Positions 4,067 to 58,200 of a stretch of DNA of 59,668 bases are shown here, piece after piece. A model generated the notes under the pieces. The model ran no database searches. It worked only from the letters and a program-made list of their open reading frames with translations, and was not told the origin of the DNA. A program made the position numbers and the translations under genes. Source of the stretch: a virus; the IMG/VR virus record IMGVR_UViG_3300002518_000001, positions 39,031-98,698 of that record; one strand, given 5' to 3'. The stretch's first letter is position 1. The number at the start of each line of letters is the position of its first letter.

Positions 4067-4861
4067 ATGTCAAAGCAGGGGCAGCAGGCATTCCCGGTCG
4101 TTCGGGATCGCGAAACATCGGGCAATAGCACAGGTGGTGTTGCACCTCCGGGGTACGGAGCGCACGACAAAGAAGATCATTTGTGGATTATTCCCAAGTT
4201 CGCGATCCACCCGATCACAAAGAGGTTGGAGGCCACGGCAGGGTTGTTTTATCGAATGTGGCCAGAGCATGTCTCTGCGTTGTTGGAGATGCGTGACGAG
4301 GGATGGCCGCACATTGAGATTGTTCGAGTTGCCAAGGAGTTCTGGGGTCGTCAACAAGAGGCGTATCAGAAAGATGAAGCCTTGGTGCAGCAGTACAAAG
4401 AGCAGTCTCACTCGCAGCGAATGCAGGAAGGGCAGAATTTGCAGGCGGGTGCAGCAGGTCTGTTGCCACCGGAAGTGGCACAGCAGATGGAGCAGGGACA
4501 GGAAGATCCCGAATTGCAACGCAGCTTATCTTTAATGCCGACGTCGGAGTATCGTCGGGCGTTGGCAGAGTATAAAGATAAGCATAGCCAGGGTCGTCGG
4601 CACGGTCGGCGTCCGCCATTTACACGAAGTCAGCGAGGTTCTGCCATGGAAACGATGACACGAAGACAGCACCGTTCATGGGGGAGGGGTGGTGGTTTCG
4701 CTGTTCTGACCAAAGCAGATGTCACCGGGGAAGAGGTCGATACGCCGAAAAGATTGCGCGATAAGCGCGAGATGTCTTTTACGCGAAAAGATACAGGCGT
4801 GGCGAATGCTGCGTTCTCGGCACCGTCTGACTCAAATGTTGATCATCGAGGTACGTCGTGA
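4067..4861 (+). CDS. Unidentified pre-portal protein with GFAV-LTK motif
   Basis: 264 residues. An ordered segment, HDKEDHLWIIPKFAIHP, is followed by a Trp-containing helical part and a Gln-rich stretch. The C-terminal third is basic and contains GGGFAVLTKAD, a variant of the GFGV-x-x-K peptide repeated across this window. The stop overlaps the GTG start of the portal gene, so expression is coupled to the portal. A head-completion or virion-internal role fits the position but is not shown by the sequence. Confidence 0.75.
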   Translation: MSKQGQQAFPVVRDRETSGNSTGGVAPPGYGAHDKEDHLWIIPKFAIHPITKRLEATAGLFYRMWPEHVSALLEMRDEGWPHIEIVRVAKEFWGRQQEAYQKDEALVQQYKEQSHSQRMQEGQNLQAGAAGLLPPEVAQQMEQGQEDPELQRSLSLMPTSEYRRALAEYKDKHSQGRRHGRRPPFTRSQRGSAMETMTRRQHRSWGRGGGFAVLTKADVTGEEVDTPKRLRDKREMSFTRKDTGVANAAFSAPSDSNVDHRGTS

Positions 4862-8080: not shown

Positions 8081-11000
8081 ATGTCGTCGAAGTTGCAAAA
8101 GTCGTTATTGGCGAATCAGGTAGCCAACATGGTGGGGCGTCGTCGCTCTGTAGGAGTGTTGCAAGAGCAGACTCCCCAATGGGGTACTCCTTTTGCGGGT
8201 TCGGACGAAAATCAACCAAAGGGTCGATTTTTTGGCACAGACGGATGGCGACAAAGTCACAAGATAACGGACGAAGAGCTTCGGAAGGCGAGTGATGATT
8301 CCGGGTTCGGTGATCCAAGGGAGGCTCCTGGGCAACAAGCTCAGGATAACCGTTCTCCCGAAGAGAGGTTAGCTGGAGCCAAGGCCAATATTCGCAGTAG
8401 AGGGGTCTCTGCTGTTGTGGGGGCAGCCCAGCGAGGAAAAGAATTGGGCCAAAAGATGGCCACCGCTTTGATGGATACGAGTGGTTCTGGGTTAGCAAGT
8501 GTCGCGACAGGAGCTTTACCGGGTGCGGTGAGTTCTTTGGCTGGCACGGCGTCGCGGGCTTCCCAAAGAAAACAAGCGGACATCTCCGACGCTGCGACGA
8601 TACGAAGGCTGAAGCCTCGACATTCGTCTCCGCAGGGAGCACAGGCAGATGGCAGCAAGCCTCGACATTCGTCTCCGCAGGGAGCACAGGCAGATGGCAG
8701 CAAGCCTTCTGGCGGGTTTGGCCTTACGGTGACCAGGGGGGAGATGCCTCGTGAGAGTGGACTCACGATTCCGAGTATCCCGGCAGTTCCCGATCCAAAT
8801 TGGGGTGGCGGGACTTCTCTGGAGGGTATGGGCTCTGGATTTGGAGTCGTATCCAAGTCAAAAAAAAAAAGCCTAGATTTGCTGGATGAGTGTGGTTTCG
8901 GGTTGCTCTGTTCTTACGAGTACGACGTCCCATTCTTGATTAAAAGTCAGCAGGATGACCCGTCTGCGCCTGTTCCCAAGGTTGCAGGCCATTTTTTGAC
9001 AGGGGCACCGAATCCGTATTCGGGAGACGAGGAGCACTTTCACCCGCGTCGTGAGCATTTCGATAGTATGATCTCCCACGCAGCAGTGGGCAGGAGAGAC
9101 GAGGCAGAGTCGTTAGCTCGTCGGCACGTGGCGGACCATAGTGCTGATTTCTCTCCAGAACAACGTGACCACTCCTCGCAATCCCATCACAGGCACGCAC
9201 AGAAGCTGCGTTCAGAGATTGGGGATTATCACCCCGGAGAGCACGGTCCTATTGATCCCAACGATGATCAGTTTAAGAAGTGGTCATTGATGCATTTTCA
9301 CGGAACGGCGGCTCGCGAGCATCACGATCAGGCGTATCACGAGAGACGTGCAAAAAGAATCGCAGGAGACGCTGAACGTCGCGGTGAGGTGTTGGATAAC
9401 GAGGGTTTGTTACGTCGCTTGGAAGATGAGATCCACTCACTGTCTCACAGTGCGACAGGAAATCTTCATGGAGCGGTGGGGCTCTTGCGCGATGCGATGG
9501 AACACGCTGGCTCCTTAATGACAGGGAGAACGGACAGCGCGGGTGCTGATATGTTGGTGCGGCTCCGACAGTCGATGGGAGCCTTGGCAGAGCACATGGG
9601 CCTCAAGAGAAAGTTGCCGGATGATCTAGACTTGCTGCTGCATTCAGATGACAAGCATTGGGATCGTCTTGTCAAAGAGATTAAGTCGAGCACGCCGAAC
9701 ACGTTGGGCTTACCACACAGGCGAGGACTTAATGCGATCAACTTGTTGACCGAGGGTCAGTTTGCAGCCGTTCGAGACCCCCGGAACTATTCGTCGGAGC
9801 ACGCAGCCAAGCCGCTGCGTGGATTGCATTTAGCGGGGGGCTCTCGGTACAAGCCTGATGCGTCCAGAGGGGCATACGAGGATGCTCATCGTGTTTGTGT
9901 GGGGTTGGCCCGCCGGGACTATCAGGGACATATTTCGCGCGGCCTGCGTCTCCCGCAGGATGTTATAGGGGCGATGGCCGAGGGAGAGACGGTTCCCTTG
10001 AATGCTGTATCCTCGTGGACGGACGATCATCACATCGCTTGGGGGTTTGCGGATCGTCCTGCTCGCAGAGACGGAAGTGGACGGATGACTTCAGAGGAGG
10101 CCGACGCGATCGGCCCGCGTGTTGTCTTGCGTATCCCGGAGGCACGGTGGGGAACACCCATTTCTGACTTGAGCACTTGGAAGAACACAGAGCGGGAGAT
10201 ATTGTCGGGTGGAGAGGCGACGATTCGATCGGTAGAGAAGAAAGACCACGCGACGGGAGAATATTACGAGATTGTGTTGGACCACTCCAAGAGACCGCAA
10301 GTTCTGGAGGAGTTCCGAGACAGTCCTTTCTCGACTCGTGCTCGCGTTCAACACTTGAGGTTGGATGAGTTACCCGAAGACGGTCGCCGTTTGCGAGTTG
10401 CCGGTGACAAGCCTGGTGGTGCTCATAAAGGGGCTGTTGTGGAGCATCCAGATATGCCCAACCGCTCTTTCTTGTTGAAGCCTGTTCGGAGTGCTCCAAA
10501 GGCATTGGGAGAGGTTGCAGGATCGCAGATTGCGGCTCGCATATTGGGAGAGCATGCTGTCCCGGCCAAGCTGATCTCCACGCAAGAGTCCCATAAGAAG
10601 ATTCGTCGATTGGGTTACAAAGGGGCACCGCCCGTATCCGTGATCCAAGAGATGGTAAAGAACGGTGGAGCACTGCCAAAAGATAAAAAGGGCATTGTTT
10701 CGTTGCCGAGTGGTATTCATACGGACCTTCTTGCTTCCATGGTGGCGAATTGGGTGATCGGTGACCATGATGCCCACGGTGCTCAGTATTTAATGTCTCC
10801 GGGTGGGGATAGCGCGGTTCGGGTGGACTTCGGGCAGAGCTATAAGCACTTGCATTCTGATAGGCTGGACACACACTACCATCCAAATGCAGCGTACGGA
10901 GAGTCGAAGCCAGCACCCATGTTGCTGTTGGAGGCATTCCGAGATGGAGAGGTGGATTTAGACTTTGGGCACCCCAAGATTGAGGCAGCCATTTCGCGGG

Positions 11001-12321: not shown

Positions 12322-13362
12322 ATGTTTGGGTTTGCTGGCGTTGGTCGTCGTTCAAGAGAGTATTCTTGCTCTCCGTTTTATGCACGTGCTTTGCGCTTGG
12401 ATGCAGAAACGGCCTCTTTGGTAGCGGATTCTCCTGATTATTTGTCTCCGTTCCCAGAGAGGTTGTCTCCCAAGGAAAGGAAAGAGCGAGAGGAACATGT
12501 CAGGAATCAGTCGAAGCTGGAAAGAAAGTGGAAGGAGTTGGAGGCTGAGTACTTGCGTTGGCAGGCTGACGAGGTAGCGGAGAACGACCCCATGCAAAAA
12601 GGTTTTGGTGTCCTGTATAAAGCAGGTGAAGAGGGAGAAGGCGGAAGAGCGTCTGTTGCAGATCTGCGTCCACCTTCTGTTGCGGCCAACCCCAAGCCCT
12701 CTCATCCTCAGTATACGGACTATAGTTCGGCGAGAGTGACGGAGACAGGCCACGATCATCCGGATATTCAACGCCTCGATAAGAATCGCCCCCCTGTGTA
12801 CACCATATTTCCTCACCAGGAAGGGTACGATCGGAATGAGGCGTCAAGGTCTTATGCGACACGGCGAGAGTATGACACGAGAAGACAGCAGGAGAATATT
12901 CGCCAAGCACACAGCAGGTGGGAGCAGCAGCGGGTGAGACCACCGTCGCGTGGTCCGAATTACTCGGAAAGAATGGTACACAAAGAAAAGATGGATGCTT
13001 GGCACCAGCGAGAGGGGGCACGTTACCAACAATCTATGGACGATGCTCTTTCACAAATGGATGAGAGAATGAGTGGCGGGGGGGCTGAAGATTATCGCGA
13101 TCAGCGATCTTGGTGGGGTCGCCTGAAAGATGGAATCCGAGGAGTGAACGATTCATTCAAGGGTGTGGATTCGGGTTTCGGTGTGGTGGCCAAGGGAAAG
13201 GATAAGCCAACAGACTCTTATCGCAATGCGCAGGGCACCCGTCGCCGAGGTGAAGCCGATGTGCCATATCCGGGATCGGAGTACAAGGCGGTTGACGAAG
13301 AGGAGTCCAGTTTGAAGAAAACGTGTGGTTTCGGGGTTTCAAAGAACGGAGATGACTCATGA
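12322..13362 (+). CDS. Protein with three GFGV-x-x-K peptides
   Basis: 346 residues with AGGAG upstream. A charged helix (about residues 45-90) is followed by KGFGVLYKAG, a long polar Arg/Gln-rich region, then SGFGVVAKGK near residue 283 and CGFGVSKNG at the extreme C-terminus. No enzyme domain is visible. Because it consists mainly of linker sequence and three copies of the peptide, it is the clearest case for the peptide having a function of its own, such as a docking, packaging or cleavage signal. The stop overlaps the next start (ATGA). Confidence 0.75.
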   Translation: MFGFAGVGRRSREYSCSPFYARALRLDAETASLVADSPDYLSPFPERLSPKERKEREEHVRNQSKLERKWKELEAEYLRWQADEVAENDPMQKGFGVLYKAGEEGEGGRASVADLRPPSVAANPKPSHPQYTDYSSARVTETGHDHPDIQRLDKNRPPVYTIFPHQEGYDRNEASRSYATRREYDTRRQQENIRQAHSRWEQQRVRPPSRGPNYSERMVHKEKMDAWHQREGARYQQSMDDALSQMDERMSGGGAEDYRDQRSWWGRLKDGIRGVNDSFKGVDSGFGVVAKGKDKPTDSYRNAQGTRRRGEADVPYPGSEYKAVDEEESSLKKTCGFGVSKNGDDS

Positions 13363-18625: not shown

Positions 18626-18979
18626 GTGTTTCAAGATATAAAGTGCCAAAGTCGCCAATGTCGTAATAAAATTTTGCGCTTAAGTGGAGATGGTCATCTC
18701 CGTTTCAGTATAAAGGCTTTGATCGCAAAAGGGGAGAACGCGCAGTTGACAGCGGTTTGTAGGGATTGCGGGGAGGAAAATGTTCTTCCGTATGCGTTAT
18801 CTCCTGTTGCCCCCGTGAGTTCAGACGACAAAGAGACGGTCCAGAAGTCGAAGCCGAGGCGTGTCGCGTGCGAGGTGACCAAGGGGGGGTCGTCTGATCA
18901 AGGAGGGTTCTTGGTCATTCGAAAGTCGGTCACGAAGCCTGTTCCTTTTGTGCCTCCTGAAGAGAAAGGGGTTGACTAA
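18626..18979 (+). CDS. Com-like zinc-ribbon protein
   Basis: About 117 residues. Two cysteine pairs (C-Q-S-R-Q-C early, then CRDCGEE about 35 residues later) form a zinc ribbon resembling the phage Mu Com family of small translational regulators. The GTG at 18626 was chosen because GAGGT sits five bases upstream; a TTG at 18614 in the same frame overlaps the previous stop. The tail carries GGFLVIRKSVTK, a diverged GFG-type peptide next to a KSVTK that resembles the palindrome-coded SSVTE peptide. A promoter-like sequence overlaps the stop. Confidence 0.7.
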   Translation: MFQDIKCQSRQCRNKILRLSGDGHLRFSIKALIAKGENAQLTAVCRDCGEENVLPYALSPVAPVSSDDKETVQKSKPRRVACEVTKGGSSDQGGFLVIRKSVTKPVPFVPPEEKGVD

Positions 18980-19000: not shown

Positions 19001-19092
19001 CTAAGTATAGCCAATTTGGGATGGCGCCGAACAAGACCGCTTGAACGGTTGGCACAACCCAGTACACAACTGAATGAAATTGTTTACTCCTA

Positions 19093-19125
19093 CGGGGAGG
19101 CCGCCCAGCCTCCCCGTTTTTTTTT
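19093..19125 (+). terminator. Intrinsic terminator ahead of prohead protease
   Basis: An 8-bp GC stem (CGGGGAGG with CCTCCCCG) with an eight-base loop and nine Ts. It lies within what would otherwise be an in-frame extension of the protease gene, which is why the protease start is placed downstream at 19146. Confidence 0.9.
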
Positions 19126-19145
19126 GCCCAACAGGTGTCGAGTCA

Positions 19146-31378: not shown

Positions 31379-31473
31379 CAATTGCCCCTTTTGATCTGTT
31401 CGTTGGTCGGATTAAAGGGGGCATTTTTGTATATATGGTCAAAGCCTGTTTTGTCTTGAATAGGAGAGGAGCC

Positions 31474-32232
31474 ATGTGGATACGCGGGTGGGATGCCCTG
31501 ACTGATATAGAGAAAAAACTCTGTCGTATTTACTTTGAACGGAGAGCTTGGTGCTATGCTCCGCGTCATTCCCGGTACGGAAAGTATGGCCACAAGGGTG
31601 TCAAGTTCGCACGGAAGTGGCACAAGGTGGAGAACTTTCTGACTTGGGCGATCCCTCGATACAAAGCGGGGTGGTGGTTGATCCGCTTGGATTTATCCAA
31701 AGGGTATGGTCCAGAGAATTGCGATTTCATTGATCCGAAGCAGGCGATCCGGCAACGTCAAAACCACAAGCTCACGCAGTTGACGGCATTTGGTGTGTCG
31801 AAGTCACTGTCGGAGTGGGCAGAAGACGACCGAGTGATTCATCCTGCGACGACGCTATCGACACGAGTGGGTGCTTTGCGAAAAGCTCTGGCTCTGAGCT
31901 TGGACGATCCGATCGGCGTGGAAGATGCCGAGTACTTGCTGGTGGCCCCGCGTCGCCAAGGCGTCAGGTTGGACTTTCCGAGTCTTCGGGAGAGTGAGGC
32001 GTTTGCAAGCGAAGCGATATGGACTGCCGAGCAGGAAGCTTTGGCAGTGGAGAAGCACTTGCCGGTGGTTGGGATTGTGGCTCCGGAGCCACCGACTCCG
32101 GAGCCAGAGTTAGATCTTTCAGAACATCTGATGCGCGAACTCGATGTGATTGAGATTGCCTTGTCGGCGGTTGAGGAAGAGGGTCATCTTTACAGCGTGC
32201 TCCGAGGAGGTTTGGGGGTTCTCCTCAAGTAA
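31474..32232 (+). CDS. HNH-like phage DNA-binding protein
   Basis: 252 residues with AGGAGAGG upstream. Residues 25-95 follow a pattern common in phage HNH-type and related proteins: YGHKGVKFARKWHKVENFLTW, then IRLDLSKGYGPENCDFIDPKQAIRQRQN, equivalent to the LDRIDNNGnYePeNCRWAT box. The histidines expected for an active HNH site are not obvious. A following helical region (LTQLTAFGVSKSLSEWAEDDR) is HTH-like. Such proteins are often free-standing homing endonucleases or their decayed relatives. Its place next to the tRNA island fits, because such islands are homing targets. Confidence 0.7.
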   Translation: MWIRGWDALTDIEKKLCRIYFERRAWCYAPRHSRYGKYGHKGVKFARKWHKVENFLTWAIPRYKAGWWLIRLDLSKGYGPENCDFIDPKQAIRQRQNHKLTQLTAFGVSKSLSEWAEDDRVIHPATTLSTRVGALRKALALSLDDPIGVEDAEYLLVAPRRQGVRLDFPSLRESEAFASEAIWTAEQEALAVEKHLPVVGIVAPEPPTPEPELDLSEHLMRELDVIEIALSAVEEEGHLYSVLRGGLGVLLK

Positions 32233-41282: not shown

Positions 41283-44200
41283 ATGTCCGAGCCTGTTGAA
41301 ACAGTTGAGTCTCCTGATTTGAGTCCTTCTCCGGAAGCCCTTGATCAGCATGCATTTATGGAGCAGTACCACAAAGAGGATGGTCCGGGGGAGGGAGGGG
41401 AACATCAGGTGCGCGATCTGATGCGGGATAACTCTTGGGTGCGAGCAGCACATCTTCCGGTGAATCACAGCGAAGCAGGATGGAAGGCGGGTCGAAGAAT
41501 GCCAGAGGGCATTGATCCGGAGCACGGGGAGATGTGGGATGGTTTTCGGACAGCCAACAAACTCTCCGCTTTCCATGGAGAGGAGCCGATCCATCCAGAT
41601 GATTACAGGGAGATGTTTGAATCCGACAGGGAAGCACGGGATCAGCATCGTGAATCTGTTTCGGTCTCCGACGTTCTGGGGGGATTTGGCTTGGAGTTGG
41701 GGAGGAAGAGTAAGCTTGACTCCGAGCCCGTTCAAATGGTTTCGGAGGAGCTTGGTCGCCTCCAAGGGGCGGGGATGTCCTTGTCGTCTCCGGGTTATCG
41801 TGGGGCTATAAAGTTAGAGATGCAGTCACCAGACGACGATCCTGAGTATTGGGCGTATGGCCTGTTGAGAGGTGAGTACTTACCAAAGAAACACGCAATC
41901 CGCGTTGACCGCAGCGGTGAGTCTTTCGCACATGAGTGGTTTCACGCGGTAGATGGCGACTTGGGTTTGCCGAAAAGTTGGTGGCGCCGGGCAGCGCAAA
42001 AAGTAAAGACGGCTTTTGATTTTACCAAATTTGCGGCATCTAATGGTCAAGGAGATAGGCCAGAGTCGAGACACTTAGAGAGCTTTGTGAAGTTCCTTTC
42101 GACGATACCAACTGTGCAAGAGAGATGGGATCGGTCTTATTCGACGGAGTCAAGACCTGGGATGTTGGATTGGTTGCAAGGGGATATGCCGGAAGATCCT
42201 GGAAAGGACTTGGCCGAGTATATGTTGTCTCCGCACGAGGTGTGGGCACGATTCGGGGCACAGTTGGTCTCATACAGGTCGGCTGTTGCAGTTGCTCAAG
42301 GTAGATTGGCTCACCCGACCTTGTTGGCAAACCCATACAGTGAGTTGTTGAAAGATCCAGGTCATTGGACACATGAGGAGTTCTCTCGCATCGTGAAAGT
42401 ATGGGAGAGATCTCCTCTCTCGAAGATGTTGGAGTCGGGGATAAGAAAGGCTCTTGGGTTTGGGGTGTTCTTGAAGTCTGAGGGCGAGCAACTGTCGCTG
42501 CCGTTCTCTATACGGGCACACACTCCAGGTGGCAGTGCTCCGCCTGCTGTCTCGCCACCAACACCTGTTGCGGATTCACCAGGAAGTTCAGTCACTGAAC
42601 ATTCAGGGACGGGCGGTGCAGCAGTTTCCAACAGCACGACCACCGATTCCTCTCCTGAAGTACCAACGGAAATAGTCCCGCCAGAACTGACCGGGGAGTG
42701 GGAACAGGCGGGAGGTGGCGTGCGGCATCGCGTAAAGGGCTATGTTCCCGTTATGTCGCATCCAAAATACGAAGAGATCGATCTTCATCCAGGGGCTTCT
42801 GCGAACGCGAGAGCCCATGCTTATCGGAATCGACGGGTATTGGAGGAGCCGAAAGTTGTTGATCATATGCCAATCCATGAGTATGGACACAGCGGCCTAC
42901 ATCAGGAGCGGGGGTGGGACGATATACCGGGCCGATCCATACATGATCTGGAGGAGATTAACCGCCGGGGTGTGTCGATGCAGCACAGGTATCCATCGGT
43001 GGCATCGGTCGAGTTTGAGCCGGAAGAGATCTATTCGGCGATGGATGGTTTGCAAGCAGAATTCGAGCATCGATTCCAATCACAGCTTGGGGTGGTTAAT
43101 AAGCACAAATACAAGGCACAAGTTCCCGACCACGGATTTTCGTTTGCCAATGAAGAGTCTGTGCGGAGTCCGGCACAGGTGGCAGCGGCGACATCTGCTT
43201 CGCTGTGGACAGGCGGGAAGGTCGAATATGTGCGCAATCCGGACCTTTGGGACTCAAACGAACTCGACAAGGAGAGCGTGGGAGGTCCTGGTGGGTGGGA
43301 GGGAGAGAGGACGGAAGAGAATTACAGGATGGCGCATCGGGTGATGACACAGTTGGCACAACGTCAGGGTGACGAGACAGTGTCAGTTGCTCGTGGGATG
43401 GCCATTCCAAGTCATCACGTGCCAGGGTTTTTGGACAAGATGGACTTGGGAGACATCTCAAGCTGGACCAAGGGAAGTAATTATCAGCCCACTATGACTT
43501 TTGTGAGTCATGCCTTGGATCATGGGTTTTGGGACGAAAGTCACCTTGAGTCTTTTGAGCACCAGCTTCGGGAAGGGCTGGAGCAGTCGGGGAACTTTGA
43601 GGAAGGAAGCGACGAGGTAGATCAATTACTCGAAGAATATTTCGAGCACCACGGCGGGCCATTGGGGAACAATGGTGATGCTGACATTTTTGTTGAATTG
43701 GACATGGACAGTGAGGTGCGTCACTTCCGAGAGAGTAATCTTGGGCATTACTCTTCTGGCATGGCAGCAGTCGTGTTGTTGGCCGATACAAATATTGGAA
43801 CGACACTGAACCACATCTCAGCTTATCCGGGTGAGTGGGAGCATGTGCTCGGAGGAGAGGCCACGGTGCGCGACGTGCGAAGGATTCCCTCTTGGGATTC
43901 AGGTGAGTGGGACGAGGAAGATTTTTGGGACCATGATGAAGATGATTATGCCGCTCGCGAAGATCACCCAGCGTACGGAGACACAGGAGAGAAATTTACG
44001 GAATTCACGGGTGCCAATGACCATCTTGTAGGTGGTCTCGAAATTTACGTTATCAAAGTCGAAGTGGCGCCCAAGTCCGAAGTAAAGAAGGGTCTCTCTC
44101 AAAAGGAGAAGCCCAAGCCGAAGACGTTCCAAGATTGGGTGGATTGGAACTTGAATATAAATCTTCCTCGAAAAGGCAAGGAGGAGCCGAGCACGAACAA

Positions 44201-46706
44201 GGACGAGAGAAAAGAGCAGCCTGTTATCACCAAGGGACCGACTTGGTCGGGGCATAAGTTGCAAGGGCGTGCGAAGGTCGAGGGTATGGACATCTCGATC
44301 GAAAACGCTCGCGGCAGCGTTCGTTCCGGCGTGGACCCGGATGGGAACAAGTGGGAAACGAAGATGCGCGATCCGTATGGGTATATCCGTCGGACACTTG
44401 GCGTGGACGGTGACCACTTGGATTGTTTTTTGGGACCGCTTGCTCGGCGCCAAGCCGCAGGAGAGGATGTCGAGATCCCAAAGGTGTGGGTTGTTCATTC
44501 AAGAGACATTGAGACGGGTAAATACGACGAAGACAAGGTGATGTTGGGGTACAAGGGGAAGAGCGAGGCTGTTTCTGCATTTCGGCATCACTATACTGAC
44601 CCGGACCAGCACATAGGTCCGGTGTCCGAGTTCACGATGGAAGAGTTCAAGCATCGGATCTCCGACACGATGGAGAACCCGCGAAGATTGGGTCGTGGAC
44701 GCTGGGTTAGAAAGTCGGAAGATGAGTCGCGGGCTCCAAGCTCTCCCTTCTCTGCCAGTGATGCTTCGCAGAGGGCACCGTACCACGTCCAAGACGAGCC
44801 CTATAGAGCACCCCAGGCCCACGCACCGACCCAGGACGCAAACACGTCGTGGCAGCCCCATTGGGCTGCTGTGGCCCCCACCGCAGAAGCACCGACGGAA
44901 GACAACGTGCCCAAAGAGGAACTTGTCCCACAAGAAGAACCCCCTCACGCACCGTGGCGTCACATCAGCTTGCCCCACGAGGAATTATGGGAGGAGACGG
45001 CATACGGGGAGACGAACCAAGCTGAAGCGCAGCTTGATACAGGTGATATACAAGACGAGACGTTTGCACCCGGACCTGAATTCCCAGGACAAGACGACAA
45101 TCAGGCGTCCGACGACAACGAAGAGAGTGCTCCGGCAGACCCGAAGCCGACTCAAACGCCAGCGTCGAGGACTCGATTCGCTGCTCAAGAGGCTCGTGAG
45201 TCTCGTGCCAAAGCATTCAAAGAGCAGCACAAGGGCTACGAGATACCGAGCTTGACAGAACTTTTGCATCACAACGAAGAGTACGATCACGACATCCACG
45301 TGAGCCGTGGGTGGTTTGGCCAGACTTATGTGGACAACAAGTGGAGTCCAGAGGGAGGAAGTCAAGGTCAAGTACTCGTGAAGTACGGGATTATGTCAGA
45401 AGAGGAGCAAGCCATTGCCACGGAAGTGGGGGAGTTGGGGATTGGCCCGGTGGTTTTGGACTCCCACGCGGGTCTCGTAGACATCGATGCCAACAGTCCA
45501 GGTGTTCGGCAGCTAGAGAGCTACATCAGCCAAATGCGAGATCGTGGGATTGTCCGGGGCGACTCCGGGGCAGAGCACGAAGGGATGGGGTTGAACACAA
45601 ACCATCCGTTTGCTGTGCCGGACAGCGGGCGCCATAACCGACGAGCCCACTTGGGAGATGCCCTTGACGAGCACAGGGGCGAGTATGACTTCGACATCGA
45701 GGAGCGTCGGAATGAGCTTTTCGAAGGCACGTTGGGGTCTTTGGGCATTGAAGCATACAATGACGATGACCTGATGGCGGATTACGAGCCAAAGGATGTT
45801 TTGTATGAAGTGCAGGGGATGGAAGAGGATGACCCCGACGCTCCTTATAACTCAGACATCTATTGGGGAGAACCGGAGTTCGGTGCCTACTTGGCGGATG
45901 TGGTTCGCATGGTGGGTGGAGATGAGTATGCAGTCGAAGATGTGGAGCAGACGTACGAAGAGTTGATGGAGATGCAGCGCTTCGCGGACGGCGAAACGAA
46001 CGGAGACCTGGACGATCACGTGTTGGAGGCGGGCTTGGAGATGGGCTTGTACCACACGACGTCGATGCTTGAGCGAATCCGGAGCTTACTTAACATAAAC
46101 AAGCTCCCTGTTGAGAACTTCCAAATGGGCGCTCGCATGGCGATGGAGTACTTGGAAGGGTACGAGCCGGTGGATGGTCTCTTCGGGGATCAGTACAGTT
46201 TCGACTCCGGCGACGTGGAGCCAGAGACAGCGGACGACGCGGACAAGTGGGTGCGGGCGAGCTTGGGCATCTTGGATATGATGTCCATTTTTCACGGAGA
46301 GGGCCTGACCCACGGAGATTTACACACGTATAACGTGATGTGGGACGGAGAGGTGGGGCGTTTGATTGATTTCGGGATGGCGCAACGGTACGACCAAGAC
46401 TCATTGGATTGGGGAGCCTACCAGAACTTGCTTGTGAACTTACAGAAGGGTCTGAAGACGATGAGCATGCGGGGAGCAGCGGAGGCGGGCTTGTCGGGAG
46501 ACAGTCGGATTGCAATGGAAGCCGGGATGCACAATCTTAGACAAGAGGTCAATGAGCTTGCAGGCAAAGTCACGGATGCACTGACGGACGCTCCAAGAGG
46601 AAAGCAGCGGCTGACTATGTACTATGGCGACTTTGCCGAGATGGTTCGCGAGAAGACCTTGGATGTCTCCCAAGCGTACCATGAGCTACGATCGAAGTAT
46701 CTGTAA
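41283..46706 (+). CDS. Giant polyvalent protein: peptidase, ART, pyrophosphatase-like, kinase
   Basis: 1807 residues. Modules in order: zinc peptidase (H217-E-W-F-H221, in SFAHEWFHAVDGDLG) with a helical follower ending LGFGVFLKSEGE; linker holding a palindrome copy (SSVTE); ADP-ribosyltransferase with R704 (ARGMAIP), S726-S-W-T and E851-W-E853; an inorganic-pyrophosphatase-like domain (YGYIRRTLGVDGDHLDCFLG, D1042-D1044-D1047); a long acidic linker; and a protein-kinase fold with GWFGQTYV, VLVKYG, H1677-G-D-L-H-T-Y-N1684 and D1696-F-G. These are hallmarks of the polyvalent class. It may be packaged and injected, or act early; neither is shown. ATG 41283 follows AGGTGG; a GTG 12 bases earlier is possible. 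Confidence 0.9.
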   Translation: MSEPVETVESPDLSPSPEALDQHAFMEQYHKEDGPGEGGEHQVRDLMRDNSWVRAAHLPVNHSEAGWKAGRRMPEGIDPEHGEMWDGFRTANKLSAFHGEEPIHPDDYREMFESDREARDQHRESVSVSDVLGGFGLELGRKSKLDSEPVQMVSEELGRLQGAGMSLSSPGYRGAIKLEMQSPDDDPEYWAYGLLRGEYLPKKHAIRVDRSGESFAHEWFHAVDGDLGLPKSWWRRAAQKVKTAFDFTKFAASNGQGDRPESRHLESFVKFLSTIPTVQERWDRSYSTESRPGMLDWLQGDMPEDPGKDLAEYMLSPHEVWARFGAQLVSYRSAVAVAQGRLAHPTLLANPYSELLKDPGHWTHEEFSRIVKVWERSPLSKMLESGIRKALGFGVFLKSEGEQLSLPFSIRAHTPGGSAPPAVSPPTPVADSPGSSVTEHSGTGGAAVSNSTTTDSSPEVPTEIVPPELTGEWEQAGGGVRHRVKGYVPVMSHPKYEEIDLHPGASANARAHAYRNRRVLEEPKVVDHMPIHEYGHSGLHQERGWDDIPGRSIHDLEEINRRGVSMQHRYPSVASVEFEPEEIYSAMDGLQAEFEHRFQSQLGVVNKHKYKAQVPDHGFSFANEESVRSPAQVAAATSASLWTGGKVEYVRNPDLWDSNELDKESVGGPGGWEGERTEENYRMAHRVMTQLAQRQGDETVSVARGMAIPSHHVPGFLDKMDLGDISSWTKGSNYQPTMTFVSHALDHGFWDESHLESFEHQLREGLEQSGNFEEGSDEVDQLLEEYFEHHGGPLGNNGDADIFVELDMDSEVRHFRESNLGHYSSGMAAVVLLADTNIGTTLNHISAYPGEWEHVLGGEATVRDVRRIPSWDSGEWDEEDFWDHDEDDYAAREDHPAYGDTGEKFTEFTGANDHLVGGLEIYVIKVEVAPKSEVKKGLSQKEKPKPKTFQDWVDWNLNINLPRKGKEEPSTNKDERKEQPVITKGPTWSGHKLQGRAKVEGMDISIENARGSVRSGVDPDGNKWETKMRDPYGYIRRTLGVDGDHLDCFLGPLARRQAAGEDVEIPKVWVVHSRDIETGKYDEDKVMLGYKGKSEAVSAFRHHYTDPDQHIGPVSEFTMEEFKHRISDTMENPRRLGRGRWVRKSEDESRAPSSPFSASDASQRAPYHVQDEPYRAPQAHAPTQDANTSWQPHWAAVAPTAEAPTEDNVPKEELVPQEEPPHAPWRHISLPHEELWEETAYGETNQAEAQLDTGDIQDETFAPGPEFPGQDDNQASDDNEESAPADPKPTQTPASRTRFAAQEARESRAKAFKEQHKGYEIPSLTELLHHNEEYDHDIHVSRGWFGQTYVDNKWSPEGGSQGQVLVKYGIMSEEEQAIATEVGELGIGPVVLDSHAGLVDIDANSPGVRQLESYISQMRDRGIVRGDSGAEHEGMGLNTNHPFAVPDSGRHNRRAHLGDALDEHRGEYDFDIEERRNELFEGTLGSLGIEAYNDDDLMADYEPKDVLYEVQGMEEDDPDAPYNSDIYWGEPEFGAYLADVVRMVGGDEYAVEDVEQTYEELMEMQRFADGETNGDLDDHVLEAGLEMGLYHTTSMLERIRSLLNINKLPVENFQMGARMAMEYLEGYEPVDGLFGDQYSFDSGDVEPETADDADKWVRASLGILDMMSIFHGEGLTHGDLHTYNVMWDGEVGRLIDFGMAQRYDQDSLDWGAYQNLLVNLQKGLKTMSMRGAAEAGLSGDSRIAMEAGMHNLRQEVNELAGKVTDALTDAPRGKQRLTMYYGDFAEMVREKTLDVSQAYHELRSKYL
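42586..42600. repeat. 15-bp palindrome, copy 14 (coding)
   Basis: GTTCAGTCACTGAAC, perfect consensus, read SSVTEH in the linker between the peptidase and ADP-ribosyltransferase modules of the 1807-residue protein. Confidence 0.86.
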
Positions 46707-46951: not shown

Positions 46952-48187
46952 ATGAGTCCAAAAGACGGTGGTTTTGGGGTATTGCGTAAGAGCGAGGAGC
47001 ACGACAGCTTCCAGTCGAGCAGTTATGCCGTACCAAGGGAGCAGATGACGTGGCGTCCTCCCACGCCGAATATTCCGGGCCGCCCTGTTTCGCCTCCAAG
47101 TGGGCAGCCCCAGGAACAGGCCCCGATCACTCCGCCCCCGGTGCAGCCCGGCACAGAGACTCCGACTCCAGAAGACGCTGCGTCGATGCCGAGCTTTCAC
47201 GATCGTGATCATGGATGGATGTCGCATCTGTTGCCATCCCAGGAGCATGCGAACAATATGCCGGGGCATACGAAGATGGACAGCGACCAACTTTACATGC
47301 ACCACAGCTTCGCAAGGCCATTCACCGATCTGTCCCAGTTTGATGGTGTGGACTCCAGAGTTGAGCACCGAACTGTACAGATGGGTGACAGGGAGTTCCA
47401 CCAAGCCAAGGGAGACTTGTCGCACGAGGCGGTCCACATGGGGAGCTTTGAGAGGCGTTTGGAGCGGGGCCTTGACGGTGGTTTGGAGTTGCACAACGAG
47501 CACATGTTGGTGAACCCAGAGTTCCGGGGCAAAGGGTATTCTTCCCAGTTTTATGCACGCCAAGAAGACTACCTCCGGCAATTGACACAGCACTTGCCGG
47601 AGCAAGAGAAAGCAAAGACGCGGGTCACAATGTTGGCGGATGTGGTGATCGGTCGATACCAATGGATGACGCAGGGGTATCGATTCTCCGATCATGCGAC
47701 TCGTTCAGACGTCGTGCGCAGTTGGCATTCTCAATTGGAAGACCTGTTGGCGGGTCACGCGGGCATCGTGGGTCCGGAGGCGGGCAAGAAGAAAAAAGAT
47801 GTGACGTGGGGCGACTTGCAGTCGATGGAGCCGAGGTCGTTGGATGACTTGGGGCTCCGCGAGTCTGCGGAGGAGTTGCGGGATAAACTGTGGGACGCAC
47901 AATATGACGAGAACATCGAGCCGTGGGACTTGTTGGCGATGGATCCTGGACACCGTTTTTTGATGAGGGCTTATTCGCAGACGGACGAGCAGAACGTTGT
48001 GCCGGGCTCGCTGATCAAGTTCTTGGCGTTGTGTGGTCCGGATTGGTCTGCGGTCAAGTACGTTCATGGTCCCACCGAGAAAGACCAAGAGGGCATCGAG
48101 TTCGGCGACGAGCGGCGCCATCGAATGGCACAGCACGCCCATCGTTCGGGTCGCCCGTGGGGGTGGTTGCAGTCGCAAGACAAATAA
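46952..48187 (+). CDS. Polyvalent-type protein with GNAT-like acetyltransferase domain
   Basis: 411 residues beginning MSPKDGGFGVLRKSEEHDSF, so the GFG peptide is at the N-terminus. After a proline-rich linker, residues 85-280 form a GNAT-like domain: ELHNEHMLVNPEFRGKGYSS includes the acetyl-CoA loop (R192-G-K-G-Y). The rest aligns with the protein at 24959-27598, whose loop is degenerate. The block VPGSLIKFLALCGPDWSAVKYVHG is shared too. Function would be acetylation of an unknown target. Confidence 0.8.
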   Translation: MSPKDGGFGVLRKSEEHDSFQSSSYAVPREQMTWRPPTPNIPGRPVSPPSGQPQEQAPITPPPVQPGTETPTPEDAASMPSFHDRDHGWMSHLLPSQEHANNMPGHTKMDSDQLYMHHSFARPFTDLSQFDGVDSRVEHRTVQMGDREFHQAKGDLSHEAVHMGSFERRLERGLDGGLELHNEHMLVNPEFRGKGYSSQFYARQEDYLRQLTQHLPEQEKAKTRVTMLADVVIGRYQWMTQGYRFSDHATRSDVVRSWHSQLEDLLAGHAGIVGPEAGKKKKDVTWGDLQSMEPRSLDDLGLRESAEELRDKLWDAQYDENIEPWDLLAMDPGHRFLMRAYSQTDEQNVVPGSLIKFLALCGPDWSAVKYVHGPTEKDQEGIEFGDERRHRMAQHAHRSGRPWGWLQSQDK

Positions 48188-48505: not shown

Positions 48506-50137
48506 ATGCCCATAGAAAATCCATCGTCACAATCTTTGCCAAAAGCAGGAGTCGTGCCTGCACCGGGTTCCGGGTTTGGAGTTGTTCCGAAAGGGGATGG
48601 TACGTCGCGACCTCCAACGTCGCCAAAGATTGAAGTGGGGGAAGACCTCAGTGTTTCCGATCCATCGGGGTTTGGAGTGCAGTCTCGAAGCCAGGATGTT
48701 CGAGGATACGCCCATCCGTCTGTGCCTGTGCCAGGAGCACAGAGCTTGGAGGAGACGAAGCAGCCGAATATTCCTGTAACAAATGAAAACTTGCCAGGAG
48801 AGCGTATCTTCCCCAGTGGTTATCCTGCTCCGGCGGATGGGTTGCCACCTGTAACGCCGGAGCAGCTAGAGGCGGACTACCATCAGTTTATGGATAACAG
48901 AAGAGCAGACTTGGAGCAGGCCATACTCCAGGCCAACAGTTCTATTGATCCGCACTCGGATCACTATTCTCGTGTTTTGGAATACGAGCTTTTGGACCAT
49001 GATCTGAATACGCACGTGGCGGGATATGCTCATCGTGAGAGACAGGGAGAGAGCCCAACTCAAACGATGGATCAGGTGATGGAGGAGAAAGAGAACGTCA
49101 GGAAAATGCACAAGTTGGAGGCGGAGATTCGAGAGAATGCACCGGATCTCCAGCTTCATGTAAGACAGCACAGCATACCACGGGGCCAAAGCCAATCTGT
49201 GTTGAGGGGTTTGGCCGACAAGACCACGGGTCACGGCACTCCGTGGATGCGAGGGTCGTTTTACAGCTTGTCTCCGCAAGATCAGGATATGTTGGAGGCG
49301 ATTGCTCTGTTTACAGACGGGGCCTTTACGAAAGGGCTGCGTGACCCTCATCTTATGGCAGCCGATAATCAACGGGACTCGTTCAGGGGCGTTGTGTCAG
49401 GTGCTCGCTTTGCCGACGGATCGAGAGTTCAGTTTCACCCGACAAGCAGGGGCTATGTGAAGGCTCACCAAATACTCCGAGAGCTAGGGGCCTCTCCGTA
49501 CGAAGCAGAGGACGGTGCTTTGTTTCGCGGAATGACCTTACCGGTAGAGACGATAGAGCATCTCTTGGACGGCGACGAATTCGATCTCCAGGGCGTGAGT
49601 TCTTGGACGGATAGCCGAGCCGATGCTTTGGATTTTACAGCAGGGACTCGACATCCCGGTGTGTTGTTTGTGTTGGAGGAGCCGAAGTGGGGAACAAATA
49701 TATCGAGATTGAGCAATTTTCCTCGCGAACGAGAGACAGTCGTGGGTGGTCGTGTCCAGGTGGTGTCGTCTGAGATGTCTGTCCATAACGATGTTCACGT
49801 GATTCGCGTCACACACATAGGGCAGCCGGAGAGCATTATGAAGTCAAAAGATCGTGAGCCAGGACACTTGGACGTTATCGAGCGTGAGTTCCAGCAGATA
49901 ATGCCTCACCAGCGTAGGAATCGCATGGATAGAGAGATGGCACGACGTGCTCAAGCAGAAGAACAAGAGGAGTCGGGCTTCGGTGTTGTGACTCGTGATT
50001 CTGAACAGGAAGACGAGGAGAAGTCTCTTGCGGGGGTTTCTCGGCATATGGTGCAGAGGTTGGCGAAGGAGTCTGTGCGAAGACGCGGGCTTCAGCCAAA
50101 GCCCGATGGAGTTTCGGCAAAGCCACCGGTCACGTGA
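48506..50137 (+). CDS. Polyvalent-type ADP-ribosyltransferase
   Basis: 543 residues. ATG 48506 follows AAGGTG. Two GFG peptides (SGFGVVPKGD, SGFGVQSRS) sit in the N-terminal linker and a third (SGFGVVTRDS) after the enzyme. Helical region to residue 230. The ADP-ribosyltransferase has R341 (FRGMTLP), S365-S-W-T (VSSWTDS) and E408-R-E410 (RERETVVGG), matching the R-S-ExE set of arginine-specific enzymes. A basic C-terminal tail follows. The enzyme module is very similar in layout to that of the 1220-residue protein, including WGTPIS against WGTNIS. Confidence 0.88.
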   Translation: MPIENPSSQSLPKAGVVPAPGSGFGVVPKGDGTSRPPTSPKIEVGEDLSVSDPSGFGVQSRSQDVRGYAHPSVPVPGAQSLEETKQPNIPVTNENLPGERIFPSGYPAPADGLPPVTPEQLEADYHQFMDNRRADLEQAILQANSSIDPHSDHYSRVLEYELLDHDLNTHVAGYAHRERQGESPTQTMDQVMEEKENVRKMHKLEAEIRENAPDLQLHVRQHSIPRGQSQSVLRGLADKTTGHGTPWMRGSFYSLSPQDQDMLEAIALFTDGAFTKGLRDPHLMAADNQRDSFRGVVSGARFADGSRVQFHPTSRGYVKAHQILRELGASPYEAEDGALFRGMTLPVETIEHLLDGDEFDLQGVSSWTDSRADALDFTAGTRHPGVLFVLEEPKWGTNISRLSNFPRERETVVGGRVQVVSSEMSVHNDVHVIRVTHIGQPESIMKSKDREPGHLDVIEREFQQIMPHQRRNRMDREMARRAQAEEQEESGFGVVTRDSEQEDEEKSLAGVSRHMVQRLAKESVRRRGLQPKPDGVSAKPPVT

Positions 50138-52035: not shown

Positions 52036-53250
52036 ATGGAACAGATGGACGATCTTAAGATTGGAGGAGAAGGTCCGGCTTCTGCGGAGGCTCAGGGAGT
52101 GCAGGGAGAGGCATCCAGTAAGCTGCCGTTTCCTCACCCTGTGGCGAATTCGAACGATCTCTCCGGGGCAAGTCGAGACGATCTGGTGAGCCATTATGAG
52201 CAGAGGAGCACAGAGCTAAAAGACCAAGAGATGTTCCAAGCGAGAGAGGCTATGGAACGGGGGGGTTCCCCAGAGGTGGAGCTTGTTCCTTCACACATGC
52301 ATAGGTATGAGAAAAAGAAGTTATTTGGAGGGTCGCCACCGCGAGAGCATTCAAAGGAGGCTTGGAAGAGGGTTATTGGCACCGGGAAGAGCCCTGCTTG
52401 GGATTGGTATGCTGACTCCCAAATGCGTGCTGCGGAGGAAGGCCAGCCCCCGACACATATGGATGATTGGATTGAGCAGTGGATGGAGAAGCACAGAACC
52501 TCCGTCACAGAAGAGCACAAGGAGGATGTTCGCAGCGGTGCATTCGCCGAGCGCCGTGGGGTTGATTTGAATGGGGTTGGTGGGGATGTCAGTGTTCATG
52601 TGGCTGAAGCGCTTGAGGATAACCTGTTAGCACCTCTTCCCAGGAACAGAGGGGCGTTAGGGGTCGTCCATCACAGAACGGGCAATGAGTTCGTGCGTTA
52701 TGGGGATCTTTACATGGGGGCGTATCATGTAAAGCAGCACACTATTGAGATTGGGACTTCGGGAGAGTCCTTCGCTCACGAGTTTTTCCACGCTCTAGAC
52801 AGTGATACGGGTTATAATTGGTGGGGTAGGGTCAAGATGGAGTTCGGGACTCCTGTGTATGCTTCGGAGGGGTCGGGGCGAACTCCTGAGGCTCGCGAGC
52901 TTGCAAAGTTTACCCACCTTTTGGGGCACTCTTTGAGCAAGACAAGAGGGAGGCACTTAAAAGATTTGTCTCCTGCGGCGAAGAGGTATTTTTACGAGCC
53001 GAAAGAGTTGTTGGCTCGATTTGGAGAGCAAATGGTCTCCCATCTTTCGCACCTGCACGCTGCCCATGGGGTTCACTCAACAGCAACAAAGTTGGCGAAG
53101 GACATTGACCATTACTACCACAGCCCTGTTCATTGGGACAAAAGAACGCTCCAGGCTCTCCTCCATGTATGGGGTGGTCTGTCTGTCGGAAAGAGGATGC
53201 TTGGCGACGTGGAGAAAGCTTTTGGGTTCGGTGTAATGGTGAAGCTGTAA
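52036..53250 (+). CDS. Polyvalent-type zinc metallopeptidase
   Basis: 404 residues. H248-E-F-F-H252 (SFAHEFFHALDSDTGYN) is the zinc site. The downstream ELLARFGEQMVSHLS probably gives the third ligand. The domain aligns with the N-terminus of the 1807-residue protein (SFAHEWFHAVDGDLG, then EVWARFGAQLVSY), so the two share a common ancestor. It ends FGFGVMVKL, the GFG peptide at the very C-terminus, where in the larger protein the same peptide joins the next module. ATG 52036 overlaps AGGAG closely; ATG 52045 is an alternative. Confidence 0.85.
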   Translation: MEQMDDLKIGGEGPASAEAQGVQGEASSKLPFPHPVANSNDLSGASRDDLVSHYEQRSTELKDQEMFQAREAMERGGSPEVELVPSHMHRYEKKKLFGGSPPREHSKEAWKRVIGTGKSPAWDWYADSQMRAAEEGQPPTHMDDWIEQWMEKHRTSVTEEHKEDVRSGAFAERRGVDLNGVGGDVSVHVAEALEDNLLAPLPRNRGALGVVHHRTGNEFVRYGDLYMGAYHVKQHTIEIGTSGESFAHEFFHALDSDTGYNWWGRVKMEFGTPVYASEGSGRTPEARELAKFTHLLGHSLSKTRGRHLKDLSPAAKRYFYEPKELLARFGEQMVSHLSHLHAAHGVHSTATKLAKDIDHYYHSPVHWDKRTLQALLHVWGGLSVGKRMLGDVEKAFGFGVMVKL

Positions 53251-55285: not shown

Positions 55286-58200
55286 ATGGAATTGGTTTGC
55301 ATCGAATGCTTATCAGGTGGCTTCGGCTTGTTTGTGAAAGGTGCGGGGCACAAGTACATCAAGCGCGAGTTGGTTTCGACTTCTCCAAGAAAGTATCGGT
55401 ATTGGTACAAGCTCCCCAGAGGAGCCTTGGTGCATGATGACGCCGTTCACGTGGGCGCCAAGTTCCGTCATGGTTCCGGTGACGATCGCGGGCACTATCA
55501 CGTAGACGAGGTCCATGATGATGGCTCGGTCAGCGTTACCCACGATGAGACCGGACATACGACCAAAGTGTCTGCACACAAGCTCAAAGACATGATCCAC
55601 ACGGGTGATCATGATCTAGGTGAATCTCCCCAAGAGAAAGGGGAGCGGGTGCTCCAAAGCTACCAACAGGCTCTCCAGACGGGCACAGACAAGCAGATCT
55701 CGCTGCGCTTACATGATCTGATGGAGCACGTGGCGGCTTATCCGCAAGAGTCGGTGTCGTTGGGTTATGCGTTGGCTCAAGCAGATCCAGGCGTCAAAGA
55801 GGCCATGTTGTCATTGGCTCATGGTGGGGTGTCCACGTTCAAGACGCACAAGTCCACAAAGAAGCGTGGAAAGAAGGGCGAGAAAACAAAACACGGTGGA
55901 GCACACGTCGAGGTGACGTTGGAGCACCGTTCGTATGGAAAGATCGTCGAGGATTCGGCCAAGCAGTTGGAGCAGTTGGATGAGTCGGCGATTGTTCAGG
56001 AGATCCAAGAGAAGACGGGCGCCACAGAAGACGAAGCCAAGCAGGCGTTCTTGGCTGTAAAGAACAGCTTGGCAAAGAAGCAGAACTCTTCGAATGAGGG
56101 GGCATCGTATCTGGAGCCCTTCACGATAGACGGCGAGTCTGTTCCGGGCGTTTTTGTTTACAGTGGGAGTAATGAGAGCAAGAAGGGAACTCTTTATGTT
56201 CGCGGACTGATCGAGAACGAAGACGTGTTGGACCCTGGGTTTGGACCGGCTCCGAAGTCTGCGAAGCCGGGTAAGGTTCTCGCTCGTGCTCAGGCTGTCA
56301 TGCGGTCCAAGTTGGACATAGGCCGGGTGCGTCAATACACGTTGACGCCGAGTGCTTTGTACGAGTGGTCACACGCTCCGGCAACCGGGGCAGACTTCAA
56401 AGAGGTTGATGGAGGGGCTGCTGATCAGGATAGCCTAGCTAGCCAGGCAGATTCCGGGTCTAAAAGTTCAGTCACCAAACAGTCTCACAAGGAAAGTTCG
56501 GACCTGGCTAATAGCCAGGTCGCCGAAGAGTCACCAGATGAGTTGGACGAGAGCTTGCCTTCCGGCAGCGAGGGTCTTCAATACGAGGGTGCCAAAAAAG
56601 GAGGTCAGTACCCCGGAGCAATCGTGAGTCACCCAGACTTCCCCGACAAGCAGTTTATGGTTAAGCCAGGACGGGATTTTTTGGTGCACGCAGAAGTTGC
56701 CGGTACGAATCTGGCGGCACGAGTGCTCGGCGACGATGTAGCCAAGGCACGTCATATCGATGTAGGTGGAGCCCCGCAATCGATCGGAAAGGGCCAGCAA
56801 CACGCATCGATTCAAGAGATGCGCGAGAACGACGGAGATTTGGTCTCCAATCGATATGACAGTCACATGATCCGGAATCTCCCGCAAGAGTTGAAACAAG
56901 ATGTGCTGCGTCATCAGGTGGCGACGTGGTTGGTGGGTGATTCGGACGCTCACGCCGGGCAGTTCTTGCGTGGGACCGACGGGAGTTTGATTCGGATTGA
57001 CTTGGGTCAAGCGTACAAGCACATCGGCAACGATCGGCTCGATCCGAGCTGGCAGCCGAACAATCCCCCGCCGGTAGTATCCCATCTGTTGGTGGGCGAT
57101 TACGCAAAGGGCCAGGGAGAGTTGGACTTCACGGACCCCCGGATCAAAGAGGCAGTGGAGAGAGCCGAGTCCATCACAGACGATGAGGTGGCACAAGCAG
57201 TCCAGCCGTATGCCGACGGTTTGGAGAAATCGGGTATTCGCTCTGCGAAAGAGACGATCGCGAAGGCAGTGGCTCGAAAGAACGGCATCCGGTCTGACTT
57301 CGAGCAGTACTTCTCCAAGGCACTCTCGCAGCGACACGGCAAGCCGATGACGTTTTCGTTTGAGGACGGCATCTCGGAGGGCGGCGTCTCTAAGGGTTTT
57401 GGGGTGTGGAGCAAGAGTGGCACTCCGGTGGAAGATGCAGACGACTCGACTGAAGCACCGACGAGGTTTCACGGTGCCAAGTTGTTTTATATAGAGCCTT
57501 TGATGGAAGAGCCCAAGGGTTTCGGGGCTCTCACGAAGGGCAGTAAGCATAAGTATGTGAAGCGAGAAGTTCGTATTGGACCTGATGGCAAGAAGCGTTA
57601 TCGGTATTGGTATAAGCTCCCCAAGGGACATATCGTGACCGACGACTCTCTTCATATAGGTGCCAAGTTCCGCCACGGTAAGGACGAGGAGCGGGGGCAC
57701 TTTCATATCGAGAGCATAAATCCGGATGGGACAATGAACGTTCGGCATGATGAGACCGGAGAGTTCAAGAAGGTCACGCTCGACAACTTGCGCGGGATGA
57801 TCCACACGGGAAGCCACGACATCGGAGAGAACCCTGCGAGCAAGCTCCAGCGGTTGTTGGAGTCTTTGCACTTAGCGTTGCAGCACGGGACGAAAAAGCA
57901 GTACAATAAGCTGTACGAGCATGTGATGGAGCACGTGGAGGCGTTTCCTCATATCGCGTTCGAGGGGAACGAGCCTGTCACATCGGACCATGTGCAAGAT
58001 AAAATGGCGGATGTGTATTCGGCGGGCAAGCTGTCAGAGCACTTGGACGACCACGAGCACTTGTCGGATGAGGTGAAGTACCAGGGCTTCTTTGCGGAAG
58101 CCAAAGCATTGGCCGAAAAGTATCATGATGCCTTGGTGGAAAAAGCTAGAGAGGCGGGTGCTAAGGGGTCTTCGTACACATATTGGATTATCAATGAGGC

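What the first reader, a model, noticed from the sequence alone, without database searches (positions are those of the whole stretch)
4690..57550. A recurring GFGV-x-x-K peptide in at least nine proteins
Examples: SGFGVVSKSK and CGFGLL (8081 gene), KGFGVLYKAG, SGFGVVAKGK and CGFGVSKNG (12322 gene), AGFGVVKKGD (24959), LGFGVFLKSE (41283), GGFGVLRKSE (46952), SGFGVVPKGD and SGFGVVTRDS (48506), FGFGVMVKL (52036), KGFGVWSKSG and GGFGLFVKG (55286). They lie at protein termini or between enzyme modules. The capsid N-terminus has DGFGLGSIQK. A shared short signal in otherwise unrelated proteins could be a capsid-targeting tag or a prohead-protease site, as with internal proteins of T4 or phiKZ-type phages.
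Basis: partly seen in the sequence, partly recalled or inferred. Interest (0 to 1): 0.84.

Follow-up and report, generated by a model that had tools for sequence, protein, structure and literature searches.

The report
Shared cargo tag at maturation-protease sites
An uncultured phage repeats a short peptide, GFGV-x-x-K, in nine otherwise unrelated giant multi-enzyme proteins; the sequence evidence suggests that its capsid-maturation protease cuts them there, and that the peptide may also tag these enzymes for loading into the virus head.

Summary
In an unbiased scan, GF.V..K is the top of 909,179 four-residue patterns in this 104.7-kb phage (10 ORFs, 0.28 expected). No pattern comes close in nine other phage genomes. 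There are 14 strong copies in 9 proteins, all in late-region genes, encoded by different synonymous codons. The carriers are polyvalent proteins: ADP-ribosyltransferase-like, HipA-like, zincin-like, Nudix, pyrophosphatase and kinase-like modules.

Best reading: GFGV-phi-x-[KR]|[SGA] is an extended cleavage site of the phage's own prohead protease. Homologous A511 capsid protein is annotated as cut K|S. The general site phi-x-K|[SAG] is 10-fold enriched in the scaffold here, and about 5 to 10-fold in the scaffolds of seven relatives. P1' is S/G/A in 12 of 14 copies. Homologous modules in relatives are bracketed by the same K|[SAG] without GFG. GFG itself is conserved in the capsid propeptide across the lineage, so GFGV may also dock cargo on the prohead core, like the T4 capsid-targeting sequence. 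Copies lying 1-6 residues from a C-terminus suggest docking more than cutting.

No close relative carries the tag, and neither cleavage nor packaging has been observed. New variant of a known kind.

The parts
4694..4714 (+). GFAVLTK|A, variant motif in gene 4067-4861
   Evidence: profile scan, E about 0
8837..8857 (+). GFGVVSK|S in gene 8081-11743
8714..8737 (+). GFGLTVTR|G, degenerate copy in gene 8081
   Evidence: weak score
8081..11743 (+). Cargo protein, 1220 aa: motif cluster, ART-like, HipA-like and NUDIX modules
   Evidence: NUDIX Pfam 2e-13; ART R-S-ExE residues; weak HipA match
12601..12621 (+). GFGVLYK|A in gene 12322
13174..13194 (+). GFGVVAK|G in gene 12322
13327..13344 (+). GFGVSK|N, C-terminal degenerate copy in gene 12322
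   Evidence: E about 0.75
18905..18925 (+). GFLVIRK|S, degenerate copy in gene 18614
   Evidence: E about 0.75
19074..20069 (+). Prohead maturation protease, the proposed cutter
   Evidence: phrog_1028 head maturation protease 1.4e-31; NDDH and GFSIQGK conserved with SPO1/A511 proteases
20115..21413 (+). Scaffold: 16 phi-x-K[SAG] against 1.6 expected
   Evidence: position between protease and capsid gene as in SPO1
21520..23001 (+). Major capsid protein, SPO1 type
   Evidence: phrog_752 2.9e-91
21565..21591 (+). GFGLGSIQK in the capsid propeptide; GFG conserved in the lineage
21607..21609 (+). K30, predicted capsid cut QLNK|ALEAG
   Evidence: aligned to the A511 Cps mature-peptide start
24989..25003 (+). 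ALYK|A, N-terminal site without GFG in gene 24938
27302..27316 (+). GFVVK|S, end of the GNAT-like module of gene 24938
   Evidence: standalone paralogue 46949 ends at the equivalent place
27557..27577 (+). GFGVVKK|G, C-terminal copy of gene 24938
42456..42476 (+). GFGVFLK|S in gene 41271, after the zincin-like module
44232..44234 (+). K988, ITK|G just before the InPase domain
44262..44657 (+). Inorganic pyrophosphatase domain inside gene 41271
   Evidence: PF18823 1.7e-38
44712..44714 (+). K1148, VRK|S just after the InPase domain
46970..46990 (+). GFGVLRK|S, N-terminal copy in gene 46949
48572..48592 (+). GFGVVPK|G, N-terminal copy in gene 48497
48668..48688 (+). GFGVQSR|S in gene 48497, before the ART-like module
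49976..49996 (+). GFGVVTR|D in gene 48497, after the ART-like module
53224..53244 (+). GFGVMVK|L, last residues of gene 52036
   Evidence: aligned to GFGVFLK|S of gene 41271
55319..55339 (+). GFGLFVK|G in gene 55286, before a KYIKR module
56237..56257 (+). GFGPAPK|S, degenerate copy in gene 55286
   Evidence: E about 0.95
57395..57415 (+). GFGVWSK|S in gene 55286, after the HipA-like module
57518..57538 (+). GFGALTK|G in gene 55286, before the second KYVKR module

Best explanation
The motif is GFGV-phi-x-[KR]|[SGA], an extended recognition site of this phage's own prohead maturation protease (gene 19074-20069). It is carried by giant polyvalent cargo proteins that are co-assembled with the scaffold inside the prohead. 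During maturation the protease cuts after the K/R. This frees enzyme modules from propeptides and from each other, alongside scaffold destruction and removal of the 30-residue capsid propeptide. The freed enzymes are then ejected with the DNA. GFGV probably raises affinity for the protease or prohead core, so the tag would dock cargo as well as mark the cut, like the T4 capsid-targeting sequence. Shown from sequence: the recurring motif, the P1/P1' preference, the scaffold and capsid site rule, and module boundaries in relatives. Inferred: cleavage itself, packaging, docking by GFGV, and ejection.
For: 1. The capsid protein is SPO1 type. The GenBank record of its A511 homologue annotates the mature peptide after 23 residues, EDALK|SFTTG. 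This aligns at or next to QLNK30|ALEAG here. 2. phi-x-K[SAG] occurs 16 times against 1.6 expected in this scaffold, and 11-15 against 1.2-2.4 in the scaffolds of seven relatives; it is not enriched in early proteins. 3. In the motif P3 is mostly hydrophobic, P1 is K/R, and P1' is S/G/A in 12 of 14 copies against 25% background, p about 3e-6. 4. KY[IV]xR modules in cargo of this phage and relatives are preceded within 30 residues by phi-x-K|[SAG] in 9 of about 10 cases, and only this phage adds GFG. 5. The InPase domain is a separate or terminal module in relatives but internal here, bracketed by ITK|G and VRK|S; 10 of 11 relatives with an intact N side also have such a site just upstream. 6. 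Standalone paralogues end where the fused copy has the site: 52036 (GFGVMVKL*) against 41271, and 46949 against 24938. 7. Relative fHe-Yen8-01 has a 2146-aa ADP-ribosyltransferase annotated as virion-associated.
Against: C-terminal copies (GFGVMVKL*, GFGVVKKGDMDMD*) would release only 1-6 residues if cut. No relative carries GFGV on cargo. Cargo proteins show only a modest overall phi-x-K[SAG] excess (48 against 31.6), much of it from the GFG copies themselves. The particle-associated ART of Yen8 shows no excess (13 against 16). No site separates ART, HipA-like and NUDIX modules in gene 8081. The flanks are not clearly more disordered than average (p = 0.11). No virion proteomics exists for this phage.
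Confidence: 0.62

Rival explanations
1. Uncleaved cargo-loading tag: GFGV-phi-x-K binds the scaffold or inner capsid surface, as encapsulin cargo-loading peptides do, and brings the proteins into the head without being cut.
For: Half of the copies are near a protein end, p = 0.0016, several within 1-6 residues of the C-terminus. GFG is conserved in the capsid propeptide across the lineage, 12 residues before the cut. One copy per protein would do for several proteins.
Against: P1 K/R and P1' S/G/A are as constrained as GFG and match the protease rule. Several proteins carry 3-4 copies between modules. Homologous modules in relatives keep K|[SAG] without GFG.
Confidence: 0.2
2. Binding motif for another partner (host factor, tail or portal protein, or a shared chaperone) unrelated to maturation.
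For: The motif is confined to this phage and to cargo-type proteins; lineage-specific interaction motifs arise in this way.
Against: Coincidence with the K|[SAG] rule of scaffold and capsid protein, and with module boundaries, would be unexplained.
Confidence: 0.1
3. Inherited by-product: the copies descend from duplicated modules and have no common function.
For: Two pairs of copies lie in paralogous modules.
Against: Most copies lie outside aligned homologous segments, in unrelated proteins, with different codons and flanks; more than tenfold over chance in 10 ORFs.
Confidence: 0.05

Closest known systems
T4 internal-protein capsid targeting sequence (IPI-III, CTS), PMC9026906
   Same: Short shared peptide that targets unrelated proteins to the prohead core and carries the prohead-protease cut in the same 10 residues.
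   Different: T4 CTS is N-terminal only and cut by gp21 after acidic residues (specificity from general knowledge). Here the motif is N-terminal, internal and C-terminal, the expected cut is after K/R, and targeting is undemonstrated.
Phage P1 DarB capsid targeting sequence, PMC9024508
   Same: Giant polyvalent cargo packaged in the head by a 10-30 residue signal.
   Different: P1 authors found no consensus among the Dar proteins; its capsid cut is E120|S121. Here a consensus is visible in nine proteins.
Polyvalent proteins of phages and conjugative elements, PMC5512222
   Same: Multi-domain proteins with ART, zincin-like peptidase and other early-phase effector modules, predicted to be packaged and injected.
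   Different: That paper proposes in-cis zincin autoproteolysis for some; in the passages I read it describes no shared peptide at module boundaries.
SPN3US/phiKZ prohead protease processing of ejection proteins, PMC10052503
   Same: Capsid protease trims ejection proteins; P4 valine and P1' serine preferred.
   Different: Cut after AXE, not K; propeptides N-terminal (except the protease's own) and mostly longer.
SPO1/A511-type (Herelleviridae) head module
   Same: Portal, protease, scaffold, capsid gene order and capsid/protease homologues; K|[SA] capsid cut.
   Different: Terminase only about 25% identical over part of its length to Herelleviridae; closer relatives are uncultured contigs; the cargo tag is absent there.

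Membership tests
Prohead-protease cleavage site of an SPO1/A511-type head | Same P1 and P1' residues as the annotated capsid cut (K|S) | tested here: met
   12 of 14 copies [KR]|[SGA]
Prohead-protease cleavage site of an SPO1/A511-type head | Phage encodes the cognate protease with catalytic residues | tested here: met
   phrog_1028 1.4e-31; H and S motifs conserved
Prohead-protease cleavage site of an SPO1/A511-type head | New termini at the site in virions | not testable with these tools
   no proteomics of this phage
Capsid targeting sequence (T4/P1 type) | Short peptide shared by or present on several head-packaged proteins | tested here: inconclusive
   shared by nine proteins; packaging of these proteins is only predicted
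Capsid targeting sequence (T4/P1 type) | Located at the N-terminus | tested here: not met
   copies are N-terminal, internal and C-terminal
Capsid targeting sequence (T4/P1 type) | Sufficient to bring a reporter into the head | not testable with these tools
   needs experiment
Polyvalent proteins | Several unrelated effector domains in one chain, in a phage with portal-terminase packaging | tested here: met
   gene 41271: zincin-like, ART-like, InPase (1.7e-38), kinase-like; gene 8081: ART-like, HipA-like, NUDIX
Herelleviridae | Conserved capsid, portal, protease and terminase of the family | tested here: inconclusive
   capsid protein 40% to SPO1; terminase about 25% and partial; no tree built
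Encapsulin-type cargo-loading peptide | C-terminal peptide docking on the shell interior, uncleaved | not tested
   only some copies are C-terminal; no docking test run

The most novel reading that the evidence does not exclude
GFGV-phi-x-K|[SGA] is a modular address-and-cut label derived from, or mimicking, the capsid propeptide. It can be placed anywhere in a chain. It recruits giant multi-enzyme proteins into the prohead and marks where the maturation protease dissects them into separate injected effectors, making this a phage polyprotein system with a readable cargo code.
Probability: 0.35. Interest if true: 0.75.

Novelty: new variant of a known kind. Interest (0 to 1): 0.6.

Why it matters
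How phages choose which proteins to pack in the head is known for few systems, and P1 showed no consensus among its cargo. A tag readable from sequence would let packaged effectors be listed from genomes alone and make the signal directly testable. The phi-x-K|[SAG] rule derived here should predict maturation cuts in SPO1/A511-like phages and their many uncultured relatives. If the cuts are real, phage polyvalent proteins are processed in trans like viral polyproteins, which changes how their modules are expected to act after injection.

Tried and rejected
DNA repeat or mobile element: rejected, codons differ. General frame or composition artefact: rejected by shuffles and by nine control genomes. 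Close relatives with the cargo tag: single-protein searches with the capsid protein and gene 41271, paralogue-profile searches for the HipA-like and zincin-like modules, and a scan of bacterial genomes found none (the three bacterial-genome loci were not read further). Closest capsid relative L035 (57%) is only 4.2 kb and holds no cargo. GFG elsewhere in relatives: not enriched beyond the capsid protein. Disorder of flanks: not significant (p = 0.11). One line prints the wrong residue for P1' (off by one); the counts used are those plus gene 4067. ART, HipA-like and zincin-like labels rest on invariant residues and weak profile matches (E about 0.4-0.7), not on Pfam hits. G002/L013 shares the terminase at 51% but showed no matching head genes except a 21-residue portal match, so it was not used as a head-gene relative. 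Structure prediction was not run: alignments of cargo are too shallow.

Full report
Setting. The window is bases 39031-98698 of a 104,653-base virus record. It is a tailed phage whose head genes follow the SPO1 order: portal 4858-8001 (with an intein), protease 19074-20069, scaffold 20115-21413, capsid protein 21520-23001. Capsid and protease match PHROG families at 2.9e-91 and 1.4e-31; the capsid protein is 40% identical to SPO1-type phages. IMG/VR holds at least 67 closer uncultured relatives with capsid identity of 45-57%.

Is the motif real? Yes. Every quoted peptide was found. Counting all four-residue patterns spanning up to eight positions in predicted ORFs, GF.V..K ranks first of 909,179 (10 ORFs, 0.28 expected, p about 1e-12.2). 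In nine other phage genomes treated the same way the best non-cysteine pattern was about 1e-8.8 and low complexity. A profile finds 14 copies in nine proteins with about zero expected, plus a few borderline copies. Codons vary freely, so selection acts on the peptide. The excess of GF[GAVL] is confined to cargo-type late proteins (28 against 7.4) and absent from early proteins (7 against 8.0).

What carries it? Giant multi-domain proteins flanking the head genes. Gene 41271 (1811 aa) has a zincin-like HEWFH module, an ART-like module, an inorganic pyrophosphatase domain (PF18823, 1.7e-38) and a kinase-like end. Gene 8081 has ART-like, HipA-like and NUDIX modules. Gene 55286 (1982 aa, running out of the window) has two KY[IV]KR modules, a HipA-like and an ART-like module. 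Four ART-like modules share R, SW[ST] and ExE residues. These fit the 'polyvalent proteins' of Iyer et al. 2017 (PMC5512222). In the related Yersinia phage fHe-Yen8-01 a 2146-aa ADP-ribosyltransferase is annotated as particle-associated.

The cut rule. The A511 record annotates the mature capsid protein after residue 23, EDALK|SFTTG. Aligned with SPO1 and this phage the site falls at or beside QLNK30|ALEAG. That alignment places a gap near the site, so the exact register rests on the conserved K-[AS]-[LF]-x-[AT]-G pattern. Across 80 loci of relatives the propeptide keeps GFG (rarely GPG, GHG or GYS) and the K|A step. Scaffolds, which maturation proteases degrade, are packed with hydrophobic-x-K-[SAG]: 16 against 1.6 expected here, and 11-15 against 1.2-2.4 in seven relatives. 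Early proteins show no excess (31 against 26.7). The motif obeys the same rule: after [KR] comes S, G or A in 12 of 14 copies against a background of 25%.

Module boundaries. KY[IV]xR modules in this phage and relatives have the site just upstream in 9 of about 10 cases (I set aside three chance pattern matches out of 13 listed), but only this phage has GFG there. The pyrophosphatase domain is a small separate protein or a terminal module in relatives, with K|[SAG] just before it in 10 of 11 intact cases against 29% of random windows. This K may be partly a conserved feature of the domain edge. In gene 41271 it is internal and bracketed by ITK|G and VRK|S. Two standalone paralogues, 52036 and 46949, end where the fused copy has its site. 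These facts suggest that the K|[SAG] step is the old, general signal and that GFGV is an addition of this phage.

What does GFGV add? It may be an extended contact of the protease. SPN3US protease also prefers valine at P4 and serine at P1' (PMC10052503). It may also be a docking element, since GFG is the conserved part of the capsid propeptide. T4 combines targeting and processing in ten residues (PMC9026906), and P1 DarB is packaged by a 10-30 residue signal with no consensus among Dar proteins (PMC9024508). C-terminal copies that would release one to six residues favour docking; copies between modules favour cutting. I therefore rate a cleavage site with probable docking at 0.62, and a pure tag at 0.2.

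Limits. No close relative of the cargo was found, so conservation of GFGV cannot be tested. All steps after translation are inferred.

Noticed in passing
L009 2185-2763 (-), 8120-9067, 16149-16754, 16756-17286; L010 13313-14215 (same phage, outside the window): A second shared peptide: five early-region proteins end in a basic stretch plus SDW (NRRKSSDW, ARRKSSDW, KRKKNSDW, QRKKESDW, DRKEASDW). Pattern R.K..DW ranks fourth in the unbiased scan (p about 1e-8.7). One ORF of G002 ends in RREEESDW. Function unknown, possibly a localisation tag.
   Followed up: partly
19074-20069; L030 4115-4909; L032 5158-5928: The C-terminal part of SPO1/A511-type prohead proteases carries a copy of the mature capsid N-arm with its K|S step (A511 57% over 42 aa, E 1e-11; SPO1 40% over 63 aa, E 2e-10). 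In this phage only ESLE[SG]NLK[VI]L remains.
   Followed up: partly
4858-8001: Portal gene contains an intein with a LAGLIDADG endonuclease. G019 appears to have an intein-like insert in its pyrophosphatase domain.
   Followed up: no
31354-32232: ORF ending in GGLGVLLK*, resembling the motif, in the region between cargo genes; not tested as a real gene.
   Followed up: no
L019/L018 (OR620963): Yersinia phage fHe-Yen8-01 shares portal, capsid, terminase and a NUDIX cargo (42%) with this phage and has annotated virion proteins: a possible cultured model.
   Followed up: partly
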